The translations under genes and the position numbers were made by a program. A stretch of 64,000 bases of DNA from Aphrocallistes beatrix (Eukaryota > Porifera > Hexactinellida > Sceptrulophora > Aphrocallistidae). The stretch is taken from contig OY725501.1 in NCBI GenBank assembly GCA_963281255.1, positions 3,139,674 to 3,203,673 of the forward strand, read 5' to 3'. The notes under the pieces are model-generated. The model did not search any database and was not told the DNA's origin. It worked only from the letters and a program-made list of their open reading frames with translations. Below, one piece after another: positions 16,184 through 53,860 of the stretch; positions within the stretch are counted from its first letter, which is position 1, and each line of letters starts with the position of its first letter.

Positions 16184-17439
16184 CATGCTCTTCGGTCAAG
16201 AGCATGCTCTTCAGTCAAGAGCATGCTCTTCAGTCGAGAGCATGCTCTTCAGTCAAGAGCATGCTCTTCAGTCGAGAGCATGCTCTTCGGTCAAGGCATG
16301 CTCTTCAGTCGAGAGCATGCTCTTCAGTCAAGAGCATGCTCTTCAGTCGAGAGCATGTTCTTCAGTCAAGAGCATGCTCTTCAGTCAAGAGCATGCTCTT
16401 CAGTCGAGAGCATGCTCTTCAATCAAGAACATGCTCTTCGGTCAAGAGCATGCTCTTCAGTCGGGAGCATACTCTTCGGTCAAGAGCATGCTCTTCAGTC
16501 GGGAGCATGCTCTTCGGTCAAGAGCATGCTCTTCAGTCGGGAGCATGCTCTTCGGTCAAGAGCATGCTCTTCAGTCGAGAGCATGCTCTTCAGTCAAGAG
16601 CATGCTCTTCGGTCAAGAGCATGCTCTTCAGTCGAGAGCATGCTCTTCAGTCAAGAGCATGCTCTTCAGTCGAGAGCATGCTCTTCAGTCAAGAGCATGC
16701 TCTTCAGTCGAGAGCATGCTCTTCAGTCAAGAGCATGCTCTTCGGTCAAGAGCATGCTCTTCAGTCGGGAGCATGCTCTTCGGTCAAGAGCATGCTCTTC
16801 AGTCGGGAGCATGCTCTTCGGTCAAGAGCATGCTCTTCAGTCGGGAGCATGCTCTTCGGTCAAGAGCATGCTCTTCAGTCAAGAGCATGCTCTTCGGTCA
16901 AGAGCATGCTCTTCGGTCAAGAGCATGCTCGTCAGTCAAGAGCATGCTCTTCAGTCGAGAGCATGCTCTTCGGTCAAGAGCATGCTCTTCAGTCGAGAGC
17001 ATGCTCTTCAGTCAAGAGCATGCTCTTCGGTCAAGAGCATGCTCTTCAGTCGGGAGCATGCTCTTCGGTCAAGAGCATGCTCTTCAGTCAAGAGCATGCT
17101 CTTCGGTCAAGAGCATGCTCTTCGGTCAAGAGCATGCTCGTCAGTCAAGAGCATGCTCTTCAGTCGAGAGCATGCTCTTCGGTCAAGAGCATGCTCTTCA
17201 GTCGAGAGCATGCTCTTCAGTCAAGAGCATGCTCTTCGGTCAAGAGCATGCTCTTCGGTCAAGAGCATGCTCTTCAGTCAAGAGCATGCTCTTCAGTCGA
17301 GAGCATGCTCTTCAGTCGAGAGCATGCTCTTCAGTCGAGAGCATGCTCTTCAGTCAAGAGCATGCTCTTCAGTCGAGAGCATGCTCTTCGGTCAAGAGCA
17401 TGCTCTTCAGTCGAGAGCATGCTCTTCGGTCAAGAGCAT

Positions 17440-18910
17440 GATCTTCAGTCGAGAGCATGCTCTTCAGTCAAAAGCATGCTCTTCAGTCGAGAGCATACTC
17501 TTCAGTCGGGAGCATGCTCTTCAGTCGAGAGCATGCTCTTCAGTCGGGAGCATGCTCTTCGGTCAAGAGCATGCTCTTCAGTCAAGAGCTGCTCTTCAGT
17601 CGAGAGCATGCTCTTCAGTCGAGAGCATGCTCTTCAGTCAAGAGCATGCTCTTCGGTCAAGAGCATGCTCTTCAGTCGGGAGCATGCTCTTCGGTCAAGA
17701 GCATGCTCTTCAGTCGGGAGCATGCTCTTCGGTCAAGAGCATGCTCTTCAGTCAAGAGCATGCTCTTCAGTCAAGAGCATGCTCTTCAGTCGAGAGCATG
17801 CTCTTCAGTCAAGAGCATGCTCTTCGGTCAAGAGCATGCTCTTCAGTCGGGAGCATGCTCTTCGGTCAAGAGCATGCTCTTCAGTCAAGAGCATGCTCTT
17901 CGGTCAAGAGCATGCTCTTCAGTCGGGAGCATGCTCTTCAGTCAAGAGCATGCTCTTCAGTCAAGAGCATGCTCTTCAGTCGGGAGCATGCTCTTCGGTC
18001 AAGAGCATGCTCTTCAGTCAAAAGCATGCTCTTCAGTCGAGAGCATGCTCTTCAGTCGAGAGCATGCTCTTCAGTCAAGAGCATGCTCTTCGGTCAAGAG
18101 CATGCTCTTCAGTCGGGAGCATGCTCTTCAGTCAAGAGCATGCTCTTCAGTCGAGAGCATGCTCTTCAGTCGAGAGCATGCTCTTCAGTCGAGAGCATGC
18201 TCTTCAGTCAAGAGCATGCTCTTCGGTCAAGAGCATGCTCTTCAGTCGAGAGCATGCTCTTCGGTCAAGAGCATGCTCTTCAGTCGAGAGCATGCTCTTC
18301 GGTCAAGAGCATGCTCTTCAGTCGAGAGCATGCTCTTCAGTCAAGAGCATGCTCTTCAGTCAAGAGCATGATCTTCAGTCGAGAGCATGCTCTTCAATCA
18401 AGAGCATGCTCTTCGGTCAAGAGCATGCTCTTCAGTCGGGAGCATACTCTTCGGTCAAGAGCATGCTCCTCAGTCGGGAGCATGCTCTTCGGTCAAGAGC
18501 ATGCTCTTCAGTCGGGAGCATGCTCTTCGGTCAAGAGCATGCTCTTCAGTCGAGAGCATGCTCTTCAGTCAAGAGCATGCTCTTCAGTCGAGAGCATGCT
18601 CTTCAGTCAAGAGCATGCTCTTCGGTCAAGAGCATGCTCTTCAGTCGAGAGCATGCTCTTCAGTCAAGAGCATGCTCTTCAGTCGAGAGCATGCTCTTCA
18701 GTCAAGAGCATGCTCTTCAGTCGAGAGCATGCTCTTCAGTCGAGAGCATGCTCTTCAGTCGAGAGCATGCTCTTCAGTCAAGAGCATGCTCTTCAGTCGA
18801 GAGCATGCTCTTCAGTCGAGAGCATGCTCTTCGGTCAAGAGCATGCTCTTCGGTCAAGAGCATGCTCTTCAGTCGAGAGCATGCTCTTCGGTCAAGAACA
18901 TGATCTTCAG
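17440..18910. repeat. Higher-order block, duplicated at about 22581-24032
   Basis: Rare marker variants recur in the same order in both blocks: AAAAGCATGC, then GAGCATACTC, the short unit AAGAGCTGCTC, the CTTCAATC unit, GAGCATACTC and the CTCCTCAG unit. The offset is 5141 bp at the start (17457 and 22598) and 5122 bp later (18387 and 23509), differing by exactly one 19-bp unit. Confidence 0.85.
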
Positions 18911-21179
18911 TCGAGAGCATGCTCTTCAGTCAAGAGCATGCTCTTCAGTCGAGAGCATACTCTTCAGTCGGGAGCATGCTCTTCAGTCGAGAGCATGCTC
19001 TTCAGTCAAGAGCATGCTCTTCGGTCAAGAGCATGCTCTTCAGTCGGGAGCATGCTCTTCGGTCAAGAGCATGCTCTTCAGTCGGGAGCATGCTCTTCGG
19101 TCAAGAGCATACTCTTCAGTCAAGAGCATGCTCTTCAGTCGAGAGCATGTCTTCAGTCGAGAGCATGTCTTCAGTCAAGAGCATGCTCTTCGGTCAAGAG
19201 CATGCTCTTCAGTCGGGAGCATGCTCTTCGGTCAAGAGCATGCTCTTCAGTCAAGAGCATGCTCTTCGGTCAAGAGCATGCTCTTCAGTCGGGAGCATGC
19301 TCTTCGGTCAAGAGCATGCTCTTCAGTCAAGAGCATGCTCTTCAGTCGAGAGCATGCTCTTCAGTCAAGAGCATGCTCTTCGGTCAAGAGCATGCTCTTC
19401 AGTCGGGAGCATGCTCTTCAGTCAAGAGCATGCTCTTCAGTCGAGAGCATGCTCTTCAGTCGAGAGCATGCTCTTCAGTCAAGAGCATGCTCTTCGGTCA
19501 AGAGCATGCTCTTCAGTCGAGAGCATGCTCTTCGGTCAAGAGCATGCTCTTCAGTCGAGAGCATGCTCTTCAGTCGGGAGCATGCTCTTCAGTCGGGAGC
19601 ATGCTCTTCAGTCGAGAGCATGCTCTTCAGTCAAGAGCATGCTCTTCGGTCAAGAGCATGCTCTTCAGTCGGGAGCATGCTCTTCGGTCAAGAGCATGCT
19701 CTTCAGTCAAGAGCATGCTCTTCGGTCAAGAGCATGCTCTTCAGTCGGGAGCATGCTCTTCGGTCAAGAGCATGCTCTTCAGTCAAGAGCATGCTCTTCA
19801 GTCGAGAGCATGCTCTTCAGTCAAGAGCATGCTCTTCGGTCAAGAGCATGCTCTTCAGTCGGGAGCATGCTCTTCGGTCAAGAGCATGCTCTTCAGTCAA
19901 GAGCATGCTCTTCAGTCGAGAGCATGCTCTTCAGTCGAATGCATGCTCTTCAGTCAAGAGCATGCTCTTCGGTCAAGAGCATGCTCTTCAGTCGAGAGCA
20001 TGCTCTTCGGTCAAGAGCATGCTCTTCAGTCGAGAGCATGCTCCTCAGTCGGGAGCATGCTCTTCGGTCAAGAGCATGCTCTTCAGTCGAGAGCATGCTC
20101 TTCAGTCAAGAGCATGCTCTTCAGTCGAGAGCATGCTCTTCAGTCAAGAGCATGCTCTTCGGTCAAGAGCATGCTCTTCAGTCGAGAGCATGCTCTTCAG
20201 TCAAGAGCATGCTCTTCAGTCGAGAGCATGCTCTTCAGTCAAGAGCATGCTCTTCAGTCGAGAGCATGCTCTTCAGTCGAGAGCATGCTCTTCAGTCGAG
20301 AGCATGCTCTTCAGTCAAGAGCATGCTCTTCAGTCGAGAGCATGCTCTTCAGTCGAGAGCATGCTCTTCGGTCAAGAGCATGCTCTTCGGTCAAGAGCAT
20401 GCTCTTCAGTCGAGAGCATGCTCTTCGGTCAAGAACATGATCTTCAGTCGAGAGCATGCTCTTCAGTCAAGAGCATGCTCTTCAGTCGAGAGCATACTCT
20501 TCAGTCGGGAGCATGCTCTTCAGTCGAGAGCATGCTCTTCAGTCAAGAGCATGCTCTTCAGTCGGGAGCATGCTCTTCGGTCAAGAGCATGCTCTTCAGT
20601 CGGGAGCATGCTCTTCGGTCAAGAGCATACTCTTCAGTCAAGAGCATGCTCTTCAGTCGAGAGCATGTCTTCAGTCAAGAGCATGCTCTTCGGTCAAGAG
20701 CATGCTCTTCAGTCGGGAGCATGCTCTTCGGTCAAGAGCATGCTCTTCAGTCAAGAGCATGCTCTTCGGTCAAGAGCATGCTCTTCAGTCGGGAGCATGC
20801 TCTTCGGTCAAGAGCATGCTCTTCAGTCAAGAGCATGCTCTTCAGTCGAGAGCATGCTCTTCAGTCAAGAGCATGCTCTTCGGTCAAGAGCATGCTCTTC
20901 AGTCGGGAGCATGCTCTTCAGTCAAGAGCATGCTCTTCAGTCGAGAGCATGCTCTTCGGTCAAGAGCATGCTCTTCAGTCGAGAGCATGCTCTTCAGTCG
21001 GGAGCATGCTCTTCAGTCGGGAGCATGCTCTTCAGTCGAGAGCATGCTCTTCAGTCAAGAGCATGCTCTTCGGTCAAGAGCATGCTCTTCAGTCGGGAGC
21101 ATGCTCTTCGGTCAAGAGCATGCTCTTCAGTCAAGAGCATGCTCTTCGGTCAAGAGCATGCTCTTCAGTCGAGAGCATG

Positions 21180-22400
21180 CTCTTCAGTCAAGAGCATGAT
21201 CTTCAGTCGAGCATGCTCTTCAGTCGAGAGCATGCTCTTCAGTCAAGAGCATGCTCTTCGGTCAAGAGCATGCTCTTCAGTCGAGAGCATGCTCTTCGGT
21301 CAAGAGCATGCTCTTCAGTCGAGAGCATGCTCTTCGGTCAAGAGCATGCTCTTCAGTCAAGAGCATGATCTTCAGTCGAGAGCATGCTCTTCGGTCAAGA
21401 GCATGCTCTTCAGTCGAGAGCATGCTCTTCGGTCAAGAGCATGCTCTTCGGTCAAGTGCATGCTCTTCAGTCGAGAGCATGCTCTTCGGTCAAGAGCATG
21501 CTCTTCAGTCGAGAGCATGCTCTTCAGTCAAGAGCATGCTCTTCAGTCAAGAGCATGATCTTCAGTCGAGAGCATGATCTTCATTCGAGAGCATGCTCTT
21601 CGGTCAAGAGCATGCTCTTCAGTCGGGAGCATGCTCTTCGGTCAAGAGCATGCTCTTCAGTCAAGAGCATGCTCTTCAGTCGGGAGCATGCTCTTCGGTC
21701 AAGAGCATGCTCTTCAGTCAAGAGCATGCTCTTCAGTCGAGAGCATGCTCTTCAGTCAAGAGCATGCTCTTCGGTCAAGAGCATGCTCTTCAGTCGGGAG
21801 CATGCTCTTCGGTCAAGAGCATGCTCTTCAGTCAAGAGCATGCTCTTCAGTCGAGAGCATGCTCTTCAGTCGAATGCATGCTCTTCAGTCAAGAGCATGC
21901 TCTTCGGTCAAGAGCATGCTCTTCAGTCGAGAGCATGCTCTTCGGTCAAGAGCATGCTCTTCAGTCGAGAGCATGCTCTTCGGTCAAGAGCATGCTCTTC
22001 AGTCGAGAGCATGCTCTTCAGTCAAGAGCATGATCTTCAGTCGAGCATGCTCTTCGGTCAAGAGCATGCTCTTCAGTCGGGAGCATGCTCCTCGGTCAAG
22101 AGCATGCTCTTCAGTCGAGAGCATGCTCTTCAGTCAAGAGCATGCTCTTCAGTCGAGAGCATGCTCTTCAGTCAAGAGCATGCTCTTCGGTCAAGAGCAT
22201 GCTCTTCAGTCGAGAGCATGCTCTTCGGTCAAGAGCATGCTCTTCGGTCAAGAGCATGCTCTTCAGTCGAGAGCATGCTCTTCGGTCAAGAGCATGCTCT
22301 TCAGTCGAGAGCATGCTCTTCAGTCAAGAGCATGATCTTCAGTCGAGAGCATGCTCTTCGGTCAAGAGCATGCTCTTCAGTCGAGAGCATGCTCTTCGGT
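21180..22400. repeat. Higher-order block, duplicated at about 25031-26250
   Basis: Marker variants (ATGATC units, GAATGCATGC, CTCCTCGG, GTCAAGTGC) recur in the same order with a constant 3851-bp offset: 21251/25102, 21384/25235, 21574/25425 and 22085/25936. A further marker run starting at 18919 recurs at 20456 and 24041 (offsets 1537 and 5122). Confidence 0.85.
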
Positions 22401-25400
22401 CAAGAGCATGCTCTTCGGTCAAGTGCATGCTCTTCAGTCGAGAGCATGCTCTTCAGTCGAGAGCATGCTCTTCAGTCGAGAGCATGCTCTTCAGTCAAGA
22501 GCATGCTCTTCAGTCGAGAGCATGCTCTTCGGTCAAGAGCATGCTCTTCAGTCGAGAGCATGCTCTTCGGTCAAGAGCATGATCTTCAGTCGAGAGCATG
22601 CTCTTCAGTCAAAAGCATGCTCTTCAGTCGAGAGCATACTCTTCAGTCGGGAGCATGCTCTTCAGTCGAGAGCATGCTCTTCAGTCGGGAGCATGCTCTT
22701 CGGTCAAGAGCATGCTCTTCAGTCAAGAGCTGCTCTTCAGTCGAGAGCATGCTCTTCAGTCGAGAGCATGCTCTTCAGTCAAGAGCATGCTCTTCGGTCA
22801 AGAGCATGCTCTTCAGTCGGGAGCATGCTCTTCGGTCAAGAGCATGCTCTTCAGTCGGGAGCATGCTCTTCGGTCAAGAGCATGCTCTTCAGTCAAGAGC
22901 ATGCTCTTCAGTCGAGAGCATGCTCTTCAGTCGAGAGCATGCTCTTCAGTCAAGAGCATGCTCTTCGGTCAAGAGCATGCTCTTCAGTCGGGAGCATGCT
23001 CTTCGGTCAAGAGCATGCTCTTCAGTCAAGAGCATGCTCTTCGGTCAAGAGCATGCTCTTCAGTCGGGAGCATGCTCTTCAGTCAAGAGCATGCTCTTCA
23101 GTCAAGAGCATGCTCTTCAGTCGGGAGCATGCTCTTCGGTCAAGAGCATGCTCTTCAGTCAAAAGCATGCTCTTCAGTCGAGAGCATGCTCTTCAGTCGA
23201 GAGCATGCTCTTCAGTCAAGAGCATGCTCTTCGGTCAAGAGCATGCTCTTCAGTCGGGAGCATGCTCTTCAGTCAAGAGCATGCTCTTCAGTCGAGAGCA
23301 TGCTCTTCAGTCGAGAGCATGCTCTTCAGTCAAGAGCATGCTCTTCGGTCAAGAGCATGCTCTTCAGTCGAGAGCATGCTCTTCGGTCAAGAGCATGCTC
23401 TTCAGTCGAGAGCATGCTCTTCGGTCAAGAGCATGCTCTTCAGTCGAGAGCATGCTCTTCAGTCAAGAGCATGCTCTTCAGTCAAGAGCATGATCTTCAG
23501 TCGAGAGCATGCTCTTCAATCAAGAGCATGCTCTTCGGTCAAGAGCATGCTCTTCAGTCGGGAGCATACTCTTCGGTCAAGAGCATGCTCCTCAGTCGGG
23601 AGCATGCTCTTCGGTCAAGAGCATGCTCTTCAGTCGGGAGCATGCTCTTCGGTCAAGAGCATGCTCTTCAGTCGAGAGCATGCTCTTCAGTCAAGAGCAT
23701 GCTCTTCAGTCGAGAGCATGCTCTTCAGTCAAGAGCATGCTCTTCGGTCAAGAGCATGCTCTTCAGTCGAGAGCATGCTCTTCAGTCAAGAGCATGCTCT
23801 TCAGTCGAGAGCATGCTCTTCAGTCAAGAGCATGCTCTTCAGTCGAGAGCATGCTCTTCAGTCGAGAGCATGCTCTTCAGTCGAGAGCATGCTCTTCAGT
23901 CAAGAGCATGCTCTTCAGTCGAGAGCATGCTCTTCAGTCGAGAGCATGCTCTTCGGTCAAGAGCATGCTCTTCGGTCAAGAGCATGCTCTTCAGTCGAGA
24001 GCATGCTCTTCGGTCAAGAACATGATCTTCAGTCGAGAGCATGCTCTTCAGTCAAGAGCATGCTCTTCAGTCGAGAGCATACTCTTCAGTCGGGAGCATG
24101 CTCTTCAGTCGAGAGCATGCTCTTCGGTCAAGAGCATGCTCTTCAGTCGGGAGCATGCTCTTCGGTCAAGAGCATGCTCTTCAGTCGGGAGCATGCTCTT
24201 CGGTCAAGAGCATACTCTTCAGTCAAGAGCATGCTCTTCAGTCGAGAGCATGTCTTCAGTCAAGAGCATGCTCTTCGGTCAAGAGCATGCTCTTCAGTCG
24301 GGAGCATGCTCTTCGGTCAAGAGCATGCTCTTCAGTCAAGAGCATGCTCTTCGGTCAAGAGCATGCTCTTCAGTCGGGAGCATGCTCTTCGGTCAAGAGC
24401 ATGCTCTTCAGTCAAGAGCATGCTCTTCAGTCGAGAGCATGCTCTTCAGTCAAGAGCATGCTCTTCGGTCAAGAGCATGCTCTTCAGTCGAGAGCATGCT
24501 CTTCGGTCAAGAGCATGCTCTTCAGTCGAGAGCATGCTCTTCAGTCGGGAGCATGCTCTTCAGTCGGGAGCATGCTCTTCAGTCGAGAGCATGCTCTTCA
24601 GTCAAGAGCATGCTCTTCGGTCAAGAGCATGCTCTTCAGTCGGGAGCATGCTCTTCGGTCAAGAGCATGCTCTTCAGTCAAGAGCATGCTCTTCGGTCAA
24701 GAGCATGCTCTTCAGTCGGGAGCATGCTCTTCGGTCAAGAGCATGCTCTTCAGTCAAGAGCATGCTCTTCAGTCAAGAGCATGCTCTTCGGTCAAGAGCA
24801 TGCTCTTCAGTCGGGAGCATGCTCTTCGGTCAAGAGCATGCTCTTCAGTCAAGAGCATGCTCTTCAGTCGAGAGCATGCTCTTCAGTCGAATGCATGCTC
24901 TTCAGTCAAGAGCATGCTCTTCGGTCAAGAGCATGCTCTTCAGTCGAGAGCATGCTCTTCGGTCAAGAGCATGCTCTTCAGTCGAGAGCATGCTCTTCGG
25001 TCAAGAGCATGCTCTTCAGTCGAGAGCATGCTCTTCAGTCAAGAGCATGATCTTCAGTCGAGCATGCTCTTCAGTCGAGAGCATGCTCTTCAGTCAAGAG
25101 CATGCTCTTCGGTCAAGAGCATGCTCTTCAGTCGAGAGCATGCTCTTCGGTCAAGAGCATGCTCTTCAGTCGAGAGCATGCTCTTCGGTCAAGAGCATGC
25201 TCTTCAGTCAAGAGCATGATCTTCAGTCGAGAGCATGCTCTTCGGTCAAGAGCATGCTCTTCAGTCGAGAGCATGCTCTTCGGTCAAGAGCATGCTCTTC
25301 GGTCAAGTGCATGCTCTTCAGTCGAGAGCATGCTCTTCGGTCAAGAGCATGCTCTTCAGTCGAGAGCATGCTCTTCAGTCAAGAGCATGCTCTTCAGTCA

Positions 25401-26847
25401 AGAGCATGATCTTCAGTCGAGAGCATGATCTTCAGTCGAGAGCATGCTCTTCGGTCAAGAGCATGCTCTTCAGTCGGGAGCATGCTCTTCGGTCAAGAGC
25501 ATGCTCTTCAGTCAAGAGCATGCTCTTCAGTCGGGAGCATGCTCTTCGGTCAAGAGCATGCTCTTCAGTCAAGAGCATGCTCTTCAGTCGAGAGCATGCT
25601 CTTCAGTCAAGAGCATGCTCTTCGGTCAAGAGCATGCTCTTCAGTCGGGAGCATGCTCTTCGGTCAAGAGCATGCTCTTCAGTCAAGAGCATGCTCTTCA
25701 GTCGAGAGCATGCTCTTCAGTCGAATGCATGCTCTTCAGTCAAGAGCATGCTCTTCGGTCAAGAGCATGCTCTTCAGTCGAGAGCATGCTCTTCGGTCAA
25801 GAGCATGCTCTTCAGTCGAGAGCATGCTCTTCGGTCAAGAGCATGCTCTTCAGTCGAGAGCATGCTCTTCAGTCAAGAGCATGATCTTCAGTCGAGCATG
25901 CTCTTCGGTCAAGAGCATGCTCTTCAGTCGGGAGCATGCTCCTCGGTCAAGAGCATGCTCTTCAGTCGAGAGCATGCTCTTCAGTCAAGAGCATGCTCTT
26001 CAGTCGAGAGCATGCTCTTCAGTCGAGAGCATGCTCTTCAGTCAAGAGCATGCTCTTCGGTCAAGAGCATGCTCTTCAGTCGAGAGCATGCTCTTCGGTC
26101 AAGAGCATGCTCTTCGGTCAAGAGCATGCTCTTCAGTCGAGAGCATGCTCTTCGGTCAAGAGCATGCTCTTCAGTCGAGAGCATGCTCTTCAGTCAAGAG
26201 CATGATCTTCAGTCGAGAGCATGCTCTTCGGTCAAGAGCATGCTCTTCGGTCAAGAGCATGCTCTTCGGTCAAGTGCATGCTCTTCAGTCGAGAGCATGC
26301 TCTTCGGTCAAGAGCATGCTCTTCAGTCGAGAGCATGCTCTTCAGTCAAGAGCATGCTCTTCAGTCAAGAGCATGATCTTCAGTCGAGAGCATGATCTTC
26401 AGTCGAGAGCATGCTCTTCGGTCAAGAGCATGATCTTCGGTCGAGAGCATGATCTTCAGTCGAGAGCATGCTCTTCGGTCAAGAGCATGATCTTCGGTCG
26501 AGAGCATGATCTTCAGTCGAGAGCATGCTCTTCGGTCAAGAGCATGATCTTAGGTCAAGAGCATGATCTTCAGTCGAGAGCATGCAGTTTTGAGTTATTA
26601 ACATTGTGAATGATCCATGAATGCGTCCTTGGTCTTAAAATTTGATTGAATTACTTTAATTCTGGTTTGGAATTCCTTATAAGTATTGTAAATAAACATG
26701 ATGAATTATATACACCATTTTAGGATCAAATGAAACTTGATCTTGAAAAGTAATTTCTGTAAAGTACTTGTATGTTTTTTCACGTACTCATCTTTATCTA
26801 TTCAGTTATCTTTTCACATTCATATTAGTTAGTATTGGTATCAAGTA

Positions 26848-48912: not shown

Positions 48913-51900
48913 ATGTCTGATGTAAACGAAACGAAGAAGCTGCTGCGCTCTCTGCTGATTTCGGCAGAACACGGAGTTGCTTTGAAGGACTTGGCTCGGG
49001 ACTTTTACGACACAGTAGGATACCCACTCCCCTATAAGTAAGCAAGTTCTATTCTCAATGTATAATGTGTTCCATTACATATTTTCACACACTTGATCAT
49101 AAACTAAGCTCTACAAGAATAGCTATCATGCATTGAACAATGTAGTGTCGACTATTCGAAGTGATTTAATCACTTCTTTGAACTGATCCAGCTCCCATTT
49201 CCCGCCCTCTCCCCCTTTCTCACTGCTGCTGCCCTCACTGACCGCAACTGGGTCATTGAAAACCGCAATCAAGTCAGTCCCGTACGTGTGCAAGCGGTAC
49301 AGGACGAGGTGAATCCGCACTAGATTGCTAACCTCCATAGACTCGTTGAACTTCGCTACTTTCTGTGTCCCACTCAGATAATGGCACGAGTCGCAATTCT
49401 CAATGTCTATCCCGTTGGTATCCACTGCCTCATGGCTTAGTATCACTGTTTCACTGGATTTGTTGGCTTGTGAGATCTCCTGGTAGTGAACCCTCACAGC
49501 TTCCTCTCCACTCGCTACATTCTGATACTCGAGCAGTTCTATCATTATGCTCTGGTCTGTGTTTGGGTGTGCAAACACTTCCTGGTGGTCTGGAACCTGT
49601 CTGACCTCGCTGATGTCCACTCGCTGGGAGGGGAGGGAGCAGGTGATGGCCCCTCCGTAGAGAGATGCCACACTGGTGGTAGAGGTATCCATCTCTGATA
49701 TGAATTCTGCCATCGTTCGGACTGGATTGTTAGTGCACTGAGACCATGTACACTGCTACTATATAGCAATCTTATGGATTAGCAATAACGTGCAAAACCT
49801 GTTTAACTCGATGGCCAACGCTCACTAGATGAACTTGTTTGTAAGTAGATCACTGGGATATGTCTTCTGATGATACCAAACTTGGACCGACTGAAAGCTA
49901 ATTATAGATACTTCCTTAAGAATATGAATGTGCTAAGATAGACACGAGAAAGTGTATAACATTGAATTTTATTACTTGAAGAATGAGATCCATACTTGTA
50001 ATGCTTTATATAGGAGGCTGGGGTACATGAGCATGGAGGAGTTGCTGGAGGACATTCCTGACACTGTGAGGATCTCTAGGGACTACACAGGTCAGGCCCG
50101 CCTATTCGGAGTGTCCAATCAGGACACAGAGCACATTGCCGATATGGTGAAGAAGCAGAAGAAGGGGACATTCAACCCTTACAAACCTCCTCCCAAAGTA
50201 ATCACTCTCCCTTCACGATAATAATTTAGATAGTTGTAGGGGAGGATTTGTATAGATACGTACATGCATGTAGTTTCTAGTCCTGGAATGTGTATATCTA
50301 TTTTAGGCTCAGGGTATGCAGCAGATGCAGAGAGGAGGCAAGCGCTCTTCAAAGCCTCACTACAACAGCCACAACAGCAGCTTCAACGCCTCCAGACCCG
50401 GTCCCCCTCGGGTACACGCCCGCTCCCACACACTCCCTCAGAACCACTTCGAGGTGGACAGCCTCTCTTCGAGCTCCTATCCTGACATTAACAAGCCAAG
50501 ACATGGACCTAGCTACTATAAAGGACCCCCAGCCTTCAGATCTGCTGGCAATAATCACTACGCGAAGAACTCCAATTCTCCCCAGTATAATAACGCTAAA
50601 CCTCATACACAGCAATCCCATCAGTCTTCTAACGACTACAACTACCAGAGACCTGTGCCACAGCATGTGCCGCACACTCTGTCTGGCTCTGGCATTAGAT
50701 CGGATCTCTCATCTCCGAACAAGAACTCACACTTGCTCCACGGCACTAAAGAGGCTATTTACGATCTCCTCTTGCAGAATCCAGGCGGGATTGTTGGAGA
50801 GAACATTGAGGAGGCGTACTTTCGCATTTTTAGAACGAAACTTCCCTACTATCAGCTAGGTCACAGGGACGTGAAGGGGTTCATTGAATCCATTCCTGAC
50901 ATAGTTCGAATCGACTACTCGAATGCTCAAACTCCCATCTGTCACCTAGCCCATAGGCAAGAGAAGCAAACTTCAAAAAAGGATTACAAAAACTCGGATT
51001 GGAGTACCGTTTTTCCGGAGTCATTTCATCCCTTAGAACAGATGGAACCAGATCGCGGCCCTTCGCCGGACACTAAATTTAATCTGGCAAAAGATGCTGG
51101 CTTGAATTTGGAGGAGGACTACAGTTCGTTCGTTCTGACTGAAGAGGAAAAGAAGAGGCACATCAATGACTTGAAGTCTAAGATATACATATTTCTCATG
51201 AGCAAAGGGGGTCCAGTTCCTCTTGAGGAGTTTGAGCATCAGTACAGGGCTGTGAACCGGGAAGATCCCGAGATAGCCTACCGTGTGCTAGGATACGCGA
51301 CACTTAAAGAGTTCTTGCGCGAGATAAAGGACATCTTACAGTTCATAATAGAGGACAAAGACGGAAGCACATCTGTAACTATGAAGACGAAAAAACCTTC
51401 TCCCCCTTCTCCTGGAGACCCTCTCAGGAGTTATGTGAACAATGCCCGGCCTTTTATGCCTCCTTCGAACTTAGTCCGCCCCTTTCCCGCCCAAATACAC
51501 CCTGTCTACAGGACCACACTTCCCAACTCTGGATTCATCCCGGCCGGAGCTCCCCTTAACATCCGACCGCAGAGACGGCCCAACGATAGCAACCAGAATG
51601 TACCCCGGTTCCCTACCCACACCCACAACCCTTACCCGCGGCCCCCACGCCCCCCGATTCCTGAAAAACAAAGCTACCTAACCATCCCCAATGAGCCGCA
51701 GATCCCCTTTCAATTCAGAGCTGATCCACCCGGTTTTGAGGCTAACATCAATCCATCCATCATTCCGCTCTCACCACTCAGCGACCCGTTGCTCGGCCCC
51801 TTCCCACTAGACGGTCTCATGACAAACCTGTCCTCTCTCTCGTTACGACCGGAAACTACTCCTTTGAAACCCTTCAACCCCTCCCACACAACGATCCACT

Positions 51901-53671
51901 CCCTCAATATGGACTTCAGCAAGGCACAGCGAGACTTCGTGCAGACACAGATCGTGAGCATCGCTGAGATGAGAAGTGAGGTTAAGATGAAATTCTCCTG
52001 TGAGCCTGTGCTCCGGTTTCTAGAGGGAAATAATGTAGTTCTGTTAGCAGGAGAAGATCAGGGAAAATGTGCACTAACGTCAGTGGCTCTAACGAATGGC
52101 CTCAACGTGCTGACTGATAATCTCCAAAGTTTAGTCATATGCCAGGACGCTAAGGGGGCACATAAAATATTCCAGTGCTTAGAAAATTTATCAGACAACA
52201 CAGGGCTAAAAGTCTCTTGTTACGATTCTCCCGAAAAGTTTAAATCCGTCCGCACAGAAGCGCACATAATCGTTCTGATACACTCCTTACTCGGTGAGTT
52301 ATTCACCCAATACAACACGACACAGCTGACTCGTATCGGGCTATACAACCTCATCACGGATCTCAACACATACTATGAGATTGTTCGTATTTTGAAGCTT
52401 CACATGAGTGGGAAGTTAAACGAACTCAAGTTCTTCTTCGCCACCAATCCACACAACGAAGCGGGCACATTTATACTAAAGCTCATCAATACGCTTATGG
52501 TATCTAAATGCATTTTCTCTTACTACGGGAAAGACCAGGAAACCTGCCTGACTCTGCTCCCTCATGACGTGGAGAGCAACCAGATTCGGAATGAATCAGA
52601 TGCAGACATCCGTCCTCACCTATTAGCTAGTCTAACTAGAACCCGCACGTTCCCTAATCTTTTCGACAAATTTTTAATTCCACTGGGCGCTTCCTGCAAC
52701 AATTTCACAATTCTATCTAACCACATGGAGGAGGAGCTGCTGCTGCAGTCTCTAGCTCTGATCGCGATGAATAAGGTAGAGCCGTCCACAGCCACGACAC
52801 AGGTGGCCATCGTCGTGCCTAATGAGCAGCAAGCTAAAGATTTCTTAGAGCTTTGTGAGTTAGGACAGGTTGCTGGGGTCAAAAGTTTGATGGTGAATGG
52901 CAAAACCATCAAAGAAGAGATGAGATATACTCACATATGTATTGGATGGTAAGTCAAGTACTATGCATAGACTCTCTTGATAATTTGCAATCGATGTTTT
53001 CGTCTTTAACGAAAACTATTCTGATTGCTTCCCATTGGTTGATGGAAAAGCAATATATCAAATTCCTGATAAGTATCACGCATTAGCATACAAGCCAACT
53101 TGAGCTATGATAAAAGAGACAAGAGAAAAGTGTCATTTATAGAAAAAAAAAGCGGGCATAATGAGTTTAATTTCATGTAAAAATGAGACACGTGAAAATT
53201 AGCTCAATGGAAGAGTGAAAAAAGCGGGGCTGTATGCACCAGCATTGAATCATTTTCTACAAAATAACTAAAAATCATTCTGGAGAAATGAGTTTCAAGG
53301 AAAATATTTGAGTTTTCTCTAACTTATCAGTTCAAATATTTTAAAAATGTAGAAATTGTCGATCATATGGTCCTGCAACCGATATATCTTTTTTTATCTT
53401 AATTAGTAATTGATATCTTTCGAATTTTAGGCCAAAGGAAATATCGCATATGTCCAACAACACAAAATTCCTCTCAAAACTGTCGCTAGCCATACTCTTC
53501 CGTGTTGATATAGAGCAGAAGTTTGAATATTTAGAAGATCTATTTCGAAATTGTCTCGGTCCTCAGATTGTAGTGGTTGGCTCCAACTACTCAAGACAGA
53601 TTCTGAAATTTGAGTCTCAATTCATGTCAGAACCGAAACACATCACATTTCTAGCGAGAGATACGTACTAG
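48913..53671 (+). CDS. Triple-LOTUS protein with diverged DEAD-box-like C-terminus
   Basis: Four exons, 48913-49037, 50014-50197, 50307-52948 and 53431-53671, give 1063 residues. LOTUS (OST-HTH) domain 1 (about 8-90: LLISAEHGVALKDLARDF, GYMSMEELLEDIPDTVRI), domain 2 (about 247-325: YDLLLQNPGGIVGENIEEAY, VKGFIESIPDIVRI) and domain 3 (about 385-465: FLMSKGGPVPLEEFEHQY, LGYATLKEFLREIKDIL) are clear, as in TDRD5/TDRD7. Linkers are Pro/Asn/Ser-rich. From about 640 the pattern follows a DEAD-box helicase with its motifs eroded: FLEGNNVVLLAGEDQGKC where Walker A belongs, SLVICQDAKGAHKIF for Ia, IGLYNLITDLN where DEAD belongs, FFFATNP for SAT, then AIVVPNEQQAKDFLEL for the second RecA-like half. LOTUS domains bind the Vasa helicase in germ granules, so a germline role is inferred. 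There is no Tudor domain. The helicase-like assignment is weaker than the LOTUS one. Confidence 0.82.
49126..49713 (-). CDS. RANGRF: RANGRF/MOG1, Ran-binding nuclear transport factor
   Basis: Single-exon frame of 195 residues on the minus strand, nested in intron 1 (49038-50013) of the LOTUS gene. LYGGAITCSLPSQRVDISEV, then RQVPDHQEVFAHPNTDQSIM and IELLEYQ, is the hallmark of Mog1. The C-terminal half has LSGTQKVAKFNESMEVSN and LVLYRLHTYGTDLIAVFNDP followed by a short acidic loop and a helix, as in the family. Mog1 binds Ran and promotes nucleotide release; in vertebrates it also affects sodium-channel delivery. The length is close to the usual 185-220. The frame starts at ATG 49713, with a 12-residue leader before the conserved core. 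Confidence 0.93.
   Translation of the reverse strand: MAEFISEMDTSTTSVASLYGGAITCSLPSQRVDISEVRQVPDHQEVFAHPNTDQSIMIELLEYQNVASGEEAVRVHYQEISQANKSSETVILSHEAVDTNGIDIENCDSCHYLSGTQKVAKFNESMEVSNLVRIHLVLYRLHTYGTDLIAVFNDPVAVSEGSSSEKGGEGGKWELDQFKEVIKSLRIVDTTLFNA
52949..53430. other. Last intron of the LOTUS gene
   Basis: AT-rich intron, donor GTAAGT and acceptor TTTTAG; nothing else recognised. Confidence 0.5.
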
Positions 53672-53854: not shown

Positions 53855-53860
53855 AATAAA
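53855..53860 (+). other. Poly(A) signal for the LOTUS gene
   Basis: AATAAA about 184 bp after the stop at 53671. Confidence 0.5.

What the first reader, a model, noticed from the sequence alone, without database searches (positions are those of the whole stretch)
50307..53671. LOTUS-domain protein fused to a pseudo-DEAD-box helicase
LOTUS domains of Oskar/TDRD5/TDRD7 bind and stimulate Vasa. Here three of them precede a region following DEAD-box order with every catalytic motif altered (GEDQGKC, LITDLN, FATNP). A tethered, inactive helicase partner could regulate or mimic Vasa, a germ-granule arrangement I do not know to be described.
Basis: partly seen in the sequence, partly recalled or inferred. 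Interest (0 to 1): 0.75.

Follow-up and report, generated by a model that had tools for sequence, protein, structure and literature searches.

The report
LOTUS protein carrying degenerate helicase lobes
An animal gene, probably from a sponge, joins domains that dock on the germline helicase Vasa to what look like two decayed copies of a helicase's front half, so it may act as a dead helicase scaffold in germ granules.

Summary
The observation largely holds. The gene has four exons (48913-49037, 50014-50197, 50307-52948, 53431-53671) and encodes 1063 residues. LOTUS1 lies upstream of the given interval, in exons 1-2, with the extension that marks Vasa-binding eLOTUS domains; LOTUS2 and LOTUS3 are in exon 3. 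Residues 636-848 (A) and 876-1063 (B) each match Pfam DEAD and nothing else (E 0.0043 and 0.0066), both under the curated cut-off. Both score as the N-terminal (RecA1) lobe; no Helicase_C or Tudor domain was found. So this is probably two consecutive decayed RecA1 lobes, not one two-lobed helicase. The same genome holds another LOTUS + A' + B' gene, next to three LOTUS-less relatives; B' cut out alone passes Pfam's DEAD cut-off. AlphaFold without relatives gave no usable model (pLDDT 38 and 47), so the RecA fold is unproven. Most likely function, inferred: a catalytically dead scaffold that recruits Vasa through eLOTUS, its lobes serving for assembly or RNA/protein contact, as Yb's helicase-derived parts do. 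New variant of a known kind. Expression, distribution and function are untested.

The parts
48913..49037 (+). exon 1: start codon and first half of LOTUS1
   Evidence: alignment to TDRD5 LOTUS runs across the exon 1/2 junction
50014..50197 (+). exon 2: second half of LOTUS1 with the C-terminal extension typical of eLOTUS (HIADMVKKQKK)
50307..52948 (+). exon 3: linker, LOTUS2, LOTUS3, Pro-rich linker, degenerate DEAD lobe A, first part of lobe B
   Evidence: 878-aa ATG-to-stop frame 50316-52952
50748..50924 (+). LOTUS2
   Evidence: PF12872, 28.0 bits, cut-off 23.8
51168..51341 (+). LOTUS3
   Evidence: PF12872, 26.4 bits, cut-off 23.8
51903..52541 (+). degenerate RecA1-like domain A, residues 636-848
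   Evidence: PF00270 E 0.0043, 17.2 bits, cut-off 26; own-genome profiles
52623..52948 (+). degenerate RecA1-like domain B, first part (from residue 876)
   Evidence: PF00270 E 0.0066 on the spliced domain, 16.6 bits, cut-off 26
53431..53671 (+). exon 4: rest of domain B to residue 1063 and the stop codon
   Evidence: the DEAD match spans the exon 3/4 junction
53855..53860 (+). AATAAA, likely polyadenylation signal

Best explanation
A real gene encodes an eLOTUS protein (one eLOTUS, two further LOTUS domains) whose C-terminal part is made of two consecutive, decayed N-terminal (RecA1) lobes of DEAD-box origin with no second (RecA2) lobe. Shown by sequence: gene model, LOTUS domains, DEAD relatedness of A (good) and B (weaker), loss of the canonical motifs, no detectable Helicase_C or Tudor. 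Inferred: it cannot hydrolyse ATP; eLOTUS docks on the C-terminal lobe of Vasa; the pseudo-lobes act as interaction modules (self-assembly, or RNA/protein binding) that build or tune a germ-granule condensate around Vasa, much as Yb uses a helicase-derived part for self-assembly. My estimates: architecture with A of DEAD origin about 0.85, B about 0.65, the scaffold mechanism about 0.35.
For: LOTUS1 hits TDRD5 LOTUS through the C-terminal extension; that extension is needed for Vasa binding (passages of PMC5458760). DEAD is the only Pfam family listed for A and for B. Profile of 14 own-genome DEAD-box domains: A 11.3 bits, 0 of 2000 shuffles as high; A+B 14.3 bits, 0 of 2000; best of 54 fragments of five other window ORFs 4.7 bits. 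Adding five C2-cluster domains to that profile raises A to 20.7 bits (0 of 1000 shuffles, top 9.0). Helicase_C profile: A 0.4 bits (192 of 1000 shuffles as high), B 3.0 (18 of 1000). 0 of 89 Helicase_C and 0 of 56 Tudor matches of the genome lie in this gene or the C2 cluster. A second gene, on C2, has LOTUS + A' + B'; B' cut out alone scores DEAD 29.2 bits against a 26-bit cut-off and keeps GKTT. Vasa candidate L016 reads ADFLATY where L018 reads ADLLASQ. Yb precedent: its Hel-C part is a self-assembly domain (passages of PMC6958439).
Against: No usable structure (pLDDT 38.3 and 46.8). Both Pfam matches are under the curated cut-off; B' too is just under it (25.6 against 26) when the whole C2 protein is scanned. 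With the 25-domain profile A is only 7.6 bits: 1 of 2000 shuffles and 2 of 1000 are as high. B with the 14-domain profile: 1 of 2000, 1 of 1000, 0 of 1000; with the joint profile 1 of 1000. Residues 1-630, meant as a negative control, scored 5.9 bits with the joint profile, above all 1000 of its shuffles (top 4.6), so a small excess over shuffles is not specific. The profile of the C2-cluster domains alone does not recognise A or B (59 and 21 of 1000 shuffles as high), so the link between the two genes rests on LOTUS and on DEAD as a common relative. A' is not recognisable as DEAD. The exon 3 C-terminal part finds only itself in the genome; the genome-wide DEAD search did not list this gene, though it scored only 37 of 98 candidates. 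No expression data; no other animal genome could be searched.
Confidence: 0.45

Rival explanations
1. A and B are the two lobes (RecA1 + RecA2) of one former DEAD-box helicase that has decayed; B is a RecA2 too diverged to be seen.
For: Lengths (213 and 188 aa) fit a normal two-lobe core. RecA1 and RecA2 share a fold, and some C2-cluster domains score on the Helicase_C profile: G573_B 8.6 bits (0 of 1000 shuffles as high), G573_0 5.9 bits (3 of 1000).
Against: The window's B matches DEAD, not Helicase_C, in Pfam; 3.0 bits on the Helicase_C profile, 18 of 1000 shuffles as high, against 6.5 and 11.3 bits on the two DEAD profiles. By my cutting, C2-cluster frames carry up to five consecutive units, not pairs.
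Confidence: 0.2
2. The lobes are RNA-binding modules that no longer need ATP: a passive RNA clamp that hands RNA to Vasa docked on eLOTUS.
For: RecA1 lobes carry half of the RNA-binding face of DEAD proteins (established knowledge, recalled); Yb's helicase domain confers RNA binding (passages).
Against: The RecA1 motifs that contact RNA (PTREL, TPGR; recalled) are not preserved in A (alignments).
Confidence: 0.15
3. The C-terminal region is some other alpha/beta or P-loop fold, and the DEAD similarity is convergence or chance.
For: Scores under Pfam cut-offs; low-confidence models; the residues 1-630 control also beat its own shuffles slightly.
Against: Two separate fragments pick the same one of 24,736 families; A reaches 20.7 bits with the joint profile; DEAD similarity is clear in two C2-cluster relatives.
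Confidence: 0.12
4. It is a decaying gene under no selection.
For: Highly diverged motifs; no orthologue, expression or selection data; codon signal is weak in B and absent in the Pro-rich linker.
Against: An 878-aa frame without a stop (chance about 5e-22 from window composition); splice sites that restore domains across two junctions; the reading frame scores best of six for A and B, narrowly for B.
Confidence: 0.08

Closest known systems
TDRD5/Tejas and TDRD7/Tapas
   Same: N-terminal eLOTUS, in some animals with further LOTUS domains; LOTUS1 matches TDRD5 at E 5.9e-12
   Different: No Tudor domain found in this gene (0 of 56 Tudor matches of the genome); degenerate DEAD lobes instead. LOTUS + Tudor genes exist separately on C1, C16 and C7
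Yb / TDRD12 family
   Same: piRNA-pathway proteins built from helicase-derived domains; in Yb the Hel-C part is a self-assembly domain (passages of PMC6958439)
   Different: Here LOTUS instead of Tudor, N-terminal-lobe sequence only, and no Helicase_C match. Tudor matches close to helicase matches elsewhere (C1:936-942 kb, C7:1.19 Mb) suggest conventional Tudor-helicases too
Oskar
   Same: eLOTUS in a germ-plasm protein that recruits Vasa (passages)
   Different: Pfam lists no OSK hydrolase-like domain in exons 2-4; DEAD-like lobes instead
DEAD-box helicases (Vasa, eIF4A, DDX6)
   Same: RecA1 sequence relation of A and B; one C2-cluster relative hits DDX52 and eIF4A directly
   Different: Canonical motifs lost; no recognisable second lobe; lobe apparently duplicated
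MIP-1/EGGD-1 and MIP-2/EGGD-2 of C. elegans
   Same: LOTUS scaffolds that recruit a Vasa homologue (titles and abstract starts)
   Different: Described there as LOTUS domains plus disordered regions; no helicase-derived lobes mentioned in what I saw

Membership tests
TDRD5/TDRD7 | N-terminal eLOTUS domain with C-terminal extension | tested here: met
   by sequence:
TDRD5/TDRD7 | one or more Tudor domains | tested here: not met
   Pfam on exons 2-4 and 0 of 56 genome Tudor matches at this gene
Yb/TDRD12 | Tudor domain with a DEAD helicase region | tested here: not met
   no Tudor; helicase region degenerate
DEAD-box helicase | DEAD domain over the curated score | tested here: not met
   17.2 and 16.6 bits against 26
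DEAD-box helicase | catalytic motifs I, II (DEAD) and III (SAT) | tested here: not met
   motif I AGEDQGKC; no DEAD or SAT at an aligned place
DEAD-box helicase | second lobe (Helicase_C) | tested here: not met
DEAD-box derived (RecA1 fold) | RecA-like fold of A and B | tested here: inconclusive
   sequence profiles positive, weaker for B; models unusable
eLOTUS Vasa partner | binds and stimulates Vasa | not testable with these tools
   needs a pull-down and an ATPase assay

The most novel reading that the evidence does not exclude
A family of tandem pseudo-RecA1 proteins, two of them with eLOTUS, works on Vasa in trans: eLOTUS holds Vasa's C-terminal lobe while the tethered dead N-terminal lobe competes for, or completes, its interface, forming a hybrid core that sets Vasa's open/closed cycle and drives granule assembly.
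Probability: 0.12. Interest if true: 0.82.

Novelty: new variant of a known kind. Interest (0 to 1): 0.56.

Why it matters
LOTUS domains regulate Vasa from outside; here such domains sit in one chain with what look like dead helicase lobes. If true, germ-granule scaffolds were built by recycling helicase parts more than once (Yb with Tudor, this with LOTUS), and there is a ready test of whether a tethered dead lobe can control a DEAD-box enzyme. The C2 cluster suggests a whole family of repeated pseudo-lobes.

Tried and rejected
Structure: the exon 3 C-terminal part (349 aa) and domain A alone (188 aa) were folded without relatives; pLDDT 38.3 and 46.8, so no fold search was run on them. phmmer of the exon 3 C-terminal part against PDB gave one hit, a designed protein at E 0.32, taken as chance. 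Pairwise hhalign among A, B, A' and B' found no convincing mutual relation; best were C2_A/C2_B (E 0.035) and W_A/C2_B (E 0.04). The profile of the repeated first-type domains (9 sequences, without the window) does not match DEAD, and touches A only marginally (4.0 bits). A search with the 1190-aa C2 protein found, besides itself, B' of the LOTUS gene and four weak sites matching its first domain, two of them in DEAD-box ORFs used here, but not the other two cluster frames. In one search I read minus-strand loci in the wrong orientation; one search corrects it. Profiles used 25 of the 30 DEAD loci fetched (five shorter, partial matches were left out: L032, L034, L036, L042, L043); 14 of the 25, those holding the letters DEAD, made the DEAD-box profile; 17 gave the Helicase_C profile. 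Rejected: one two-lobed helicase; TDRD12/Yb member (no Tudor); mere chance. Literature: no LOTUS-helicase fusion was noticed in the listings of searches (6 of 6 shown; 20 of 24; 15 of 48; 2 of 2; 8 of 9; 10 of 642; 8 of 20); these cover open-licence papers only, and there I saw titles and abstract starts, so this is no proof that none is in print.
Full report
What is there. The window lies in a genome of 100.5 Mb in 28 contigs, on contig C15. The gene reads through four exons, 48913-49037, 50014-50197, 50307-52948 and 53431-53671, giving 1063 residues and a stop; AATAAA follows at 53855. The splice model is supported by homology across two junctions: LOTUS1 aligns over residues 8-92 with a solved TDRD5 LOTUS across exon 1/2, and the DEAD match to B spans exon 3/4. 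In a codon-preference test the reading frame scores best of six for A and, narrowly, for B, but not for the Pro-rich linker.

LOTUS part. LOTUS2 and LOTUS3 pass Pfam's cut-off as genome matches. LOTUS1, split by an intron, carries the C-terminal extension (HIADMVKKQKK; TDRD5 has IASLVAKQRS at the same place). In passages of PMC5458760 that extension defines eLOTUS, is needed for Vasa binding, and contacts Vasa's C-terminal lobe; mutating either of two aromatic Vasa residues prevents binding. The genome's Vasa-like ORF L016 shows ADFLATY and L018 shows ADLLASQ in the region I take, by eye, to be that helix.

Helicase part. Domain A (636-848) and spliced domain B (876-1063) each gave one Pfam family at E up to 10: DEAD, at 0.0043 and 0.0066, under its 26-bit cut-off. 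A profile of 14 DEAD-box domains from the same genome gives A 11.3 bits (0 of 2000 shuffles as high), B 6.7 bits (1 of 2000) and the whole C-terminal part 14.3 bits (0 of 2000). A broader profile of 25 SF2 domains gives A 7.6 (1 of 2000), B 11.5 (0 of 2000) and the whole part 15.4 (0 of 2000). Repeats with new shuffles gave 2 of 1000 for A with the broad profile and 1 of 1000 for B with the DEAD-box profile. Of 54 fragments from five other window ORFs, the best scores were 4.7 and 3.9. A Helicase_C profile from 17 genes of the genome gives A 0.4 and B 3.0 (192 and 18 of 1000 shuffles as high). With five C2-cluster domains added to the DEAD-box profile, A rises to 20.7 bits (0 of 1000, top shuffle 9.0) and B to 7.9 (1 of 1000). 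Against this: the control, residues 1-630, scored 5.9 with the joint profile, above its own 1000 shuffles (top 4.6), and the C2-cluster profile alone does not find A or B.

Relatives in the genome. The LOTUS search scored 14 candidates and kept 10 matches, in five genes. Genes on C1, C16 and C7 are LOTUS + Tudor, TDRD5/7-like. The gene at C2:551.6-553.9 kb (764 aa) has LOTUS, a domain A' and a domain B'. B' scores DEAD 29.2 bits when cut out and 25.6, just under the cut-off, in the whole protein; it keeps GKTT. Its LOTUS is 39% identical to LOTUS1 over 94 positions, but LOTUS1 is slightly closer to C16's (46% over 87). A search with this protein found three more relatives of B' at C2:567-577 kb, in stop-to-stop frames of 443, 1297 and 1190 aa, with no LOTUS reported by Pfam. 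By my cutting they carry repeated first-type domains (nine across the four genes) and one B domain each. The 1190-aa frame opens with a domain that hits DDX52 (E 6.2e-7) and eIF4A; scanned whole it scores DEAD 25.7 bits, just under the cut-off, best in its B domain. Pfam reported nothing in the other two frames. The four B domains as a profile match the genome's DEAD profile (hhalign probability 90, E 1.5e-6, 97 columns) but only weakly PDB helicases (cgh-1, E 0.037). The first-type repeats do not match DEAD by sequence; calling them RecA-like is inference. Introns of these genes were not modelled.

No partner lobe. Of 89 Helicase_C matches and 56 Tudor matches in the genome at E up to 0.001, none lies in this gene or in the C2 cluster. 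Tudor matches near helicase matches on C1:936-942 kb and C7:1.19 Mb suggest that conventional Tudor-helicases exist apart.

Structure. Two AlphaFold runs without relatives gave mean pLDDT 38.3 and 46.8: no evidence for or against the fold.

Organism. Not given. Inference: a sponge, perhaps a glass sponge. The homeodomain search gave 19 matches from 24 candidates, near the 20 homeodomain proteins reported for the glass sponge Oopsacas minuta (passages of PMC10280926); let-7 gave 0 matches, though that search had no positive control. This is not proof.

Mechanism. Best-supported: a scaffold that recruits Vasa by eLOTUS and uses dead helicase-derived lobes as interaction modules. The precedent is Yb, whose Hel-C part self-assembles and whose helicase and Tudor parts bind RNA (passages of PMC6958439). 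Vasa recruitment is inferred from the eLOTUS type; assembly by the lobes is inferred by analogy. Trans-regulation of Vasa is possible but speculative.

Comparison and novelty. It fails tested criteria for TDRD5/7 (no Tudor), for Yb/TDRD12 (no Tudor) and for DEAD-box helicases (motifs, second lobe). It looks most like a LOTUS scaffold with Yb-like borrowed helicase parts. Paper searches showed no such fusion in the rows listed. I class it as a new variant of a known kind.

Noticed in passing
window 49126-49713 (-): An open frame matching Mog1 (Ran-interacting protein; PF04603 E 2.3e-40, nearly the whole profile) lies antisense inside intron 1 of the LOTUS gene.
   Followed up: partly
own-genome C2:551.5-576.8 kb (L011, L054, L055): Four related genes with repeated, diverged domains of probable DEAD origin, up to five units in one open frame by my cutting; one carries LOTUS.
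   Followed up: partly
L026 (C9:2.949 Mb): Near-copy of Vasa-like L016 (87% identical over 499 aa, dN 0.062, dS 0.138) with VFYEAD at motif II and SVA at motif III, while the candidate LOTUS-binding aromatics are kept: a possible second dead helicase.
   Followed up: partly
window 16184-26585: Tandem array of a 19-bp unit, about 548 copies; the long overlapping ORFs there look like by-products of the repeat.
   Followed up: no
own-genome C2:557.9-566 kb (L053) and L011:5937-7394 (-): Similar proteins on the minus strand with hydrophobic, membrane-like stretches (by eye), next to the C2 cluster; one ends in repetitive sequence.
   Followed up: no
own-genome C16:719-748 kb: Dense array of Tudor domain matches, including a 2696-aa open frame with many copies.
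   Followed up: no
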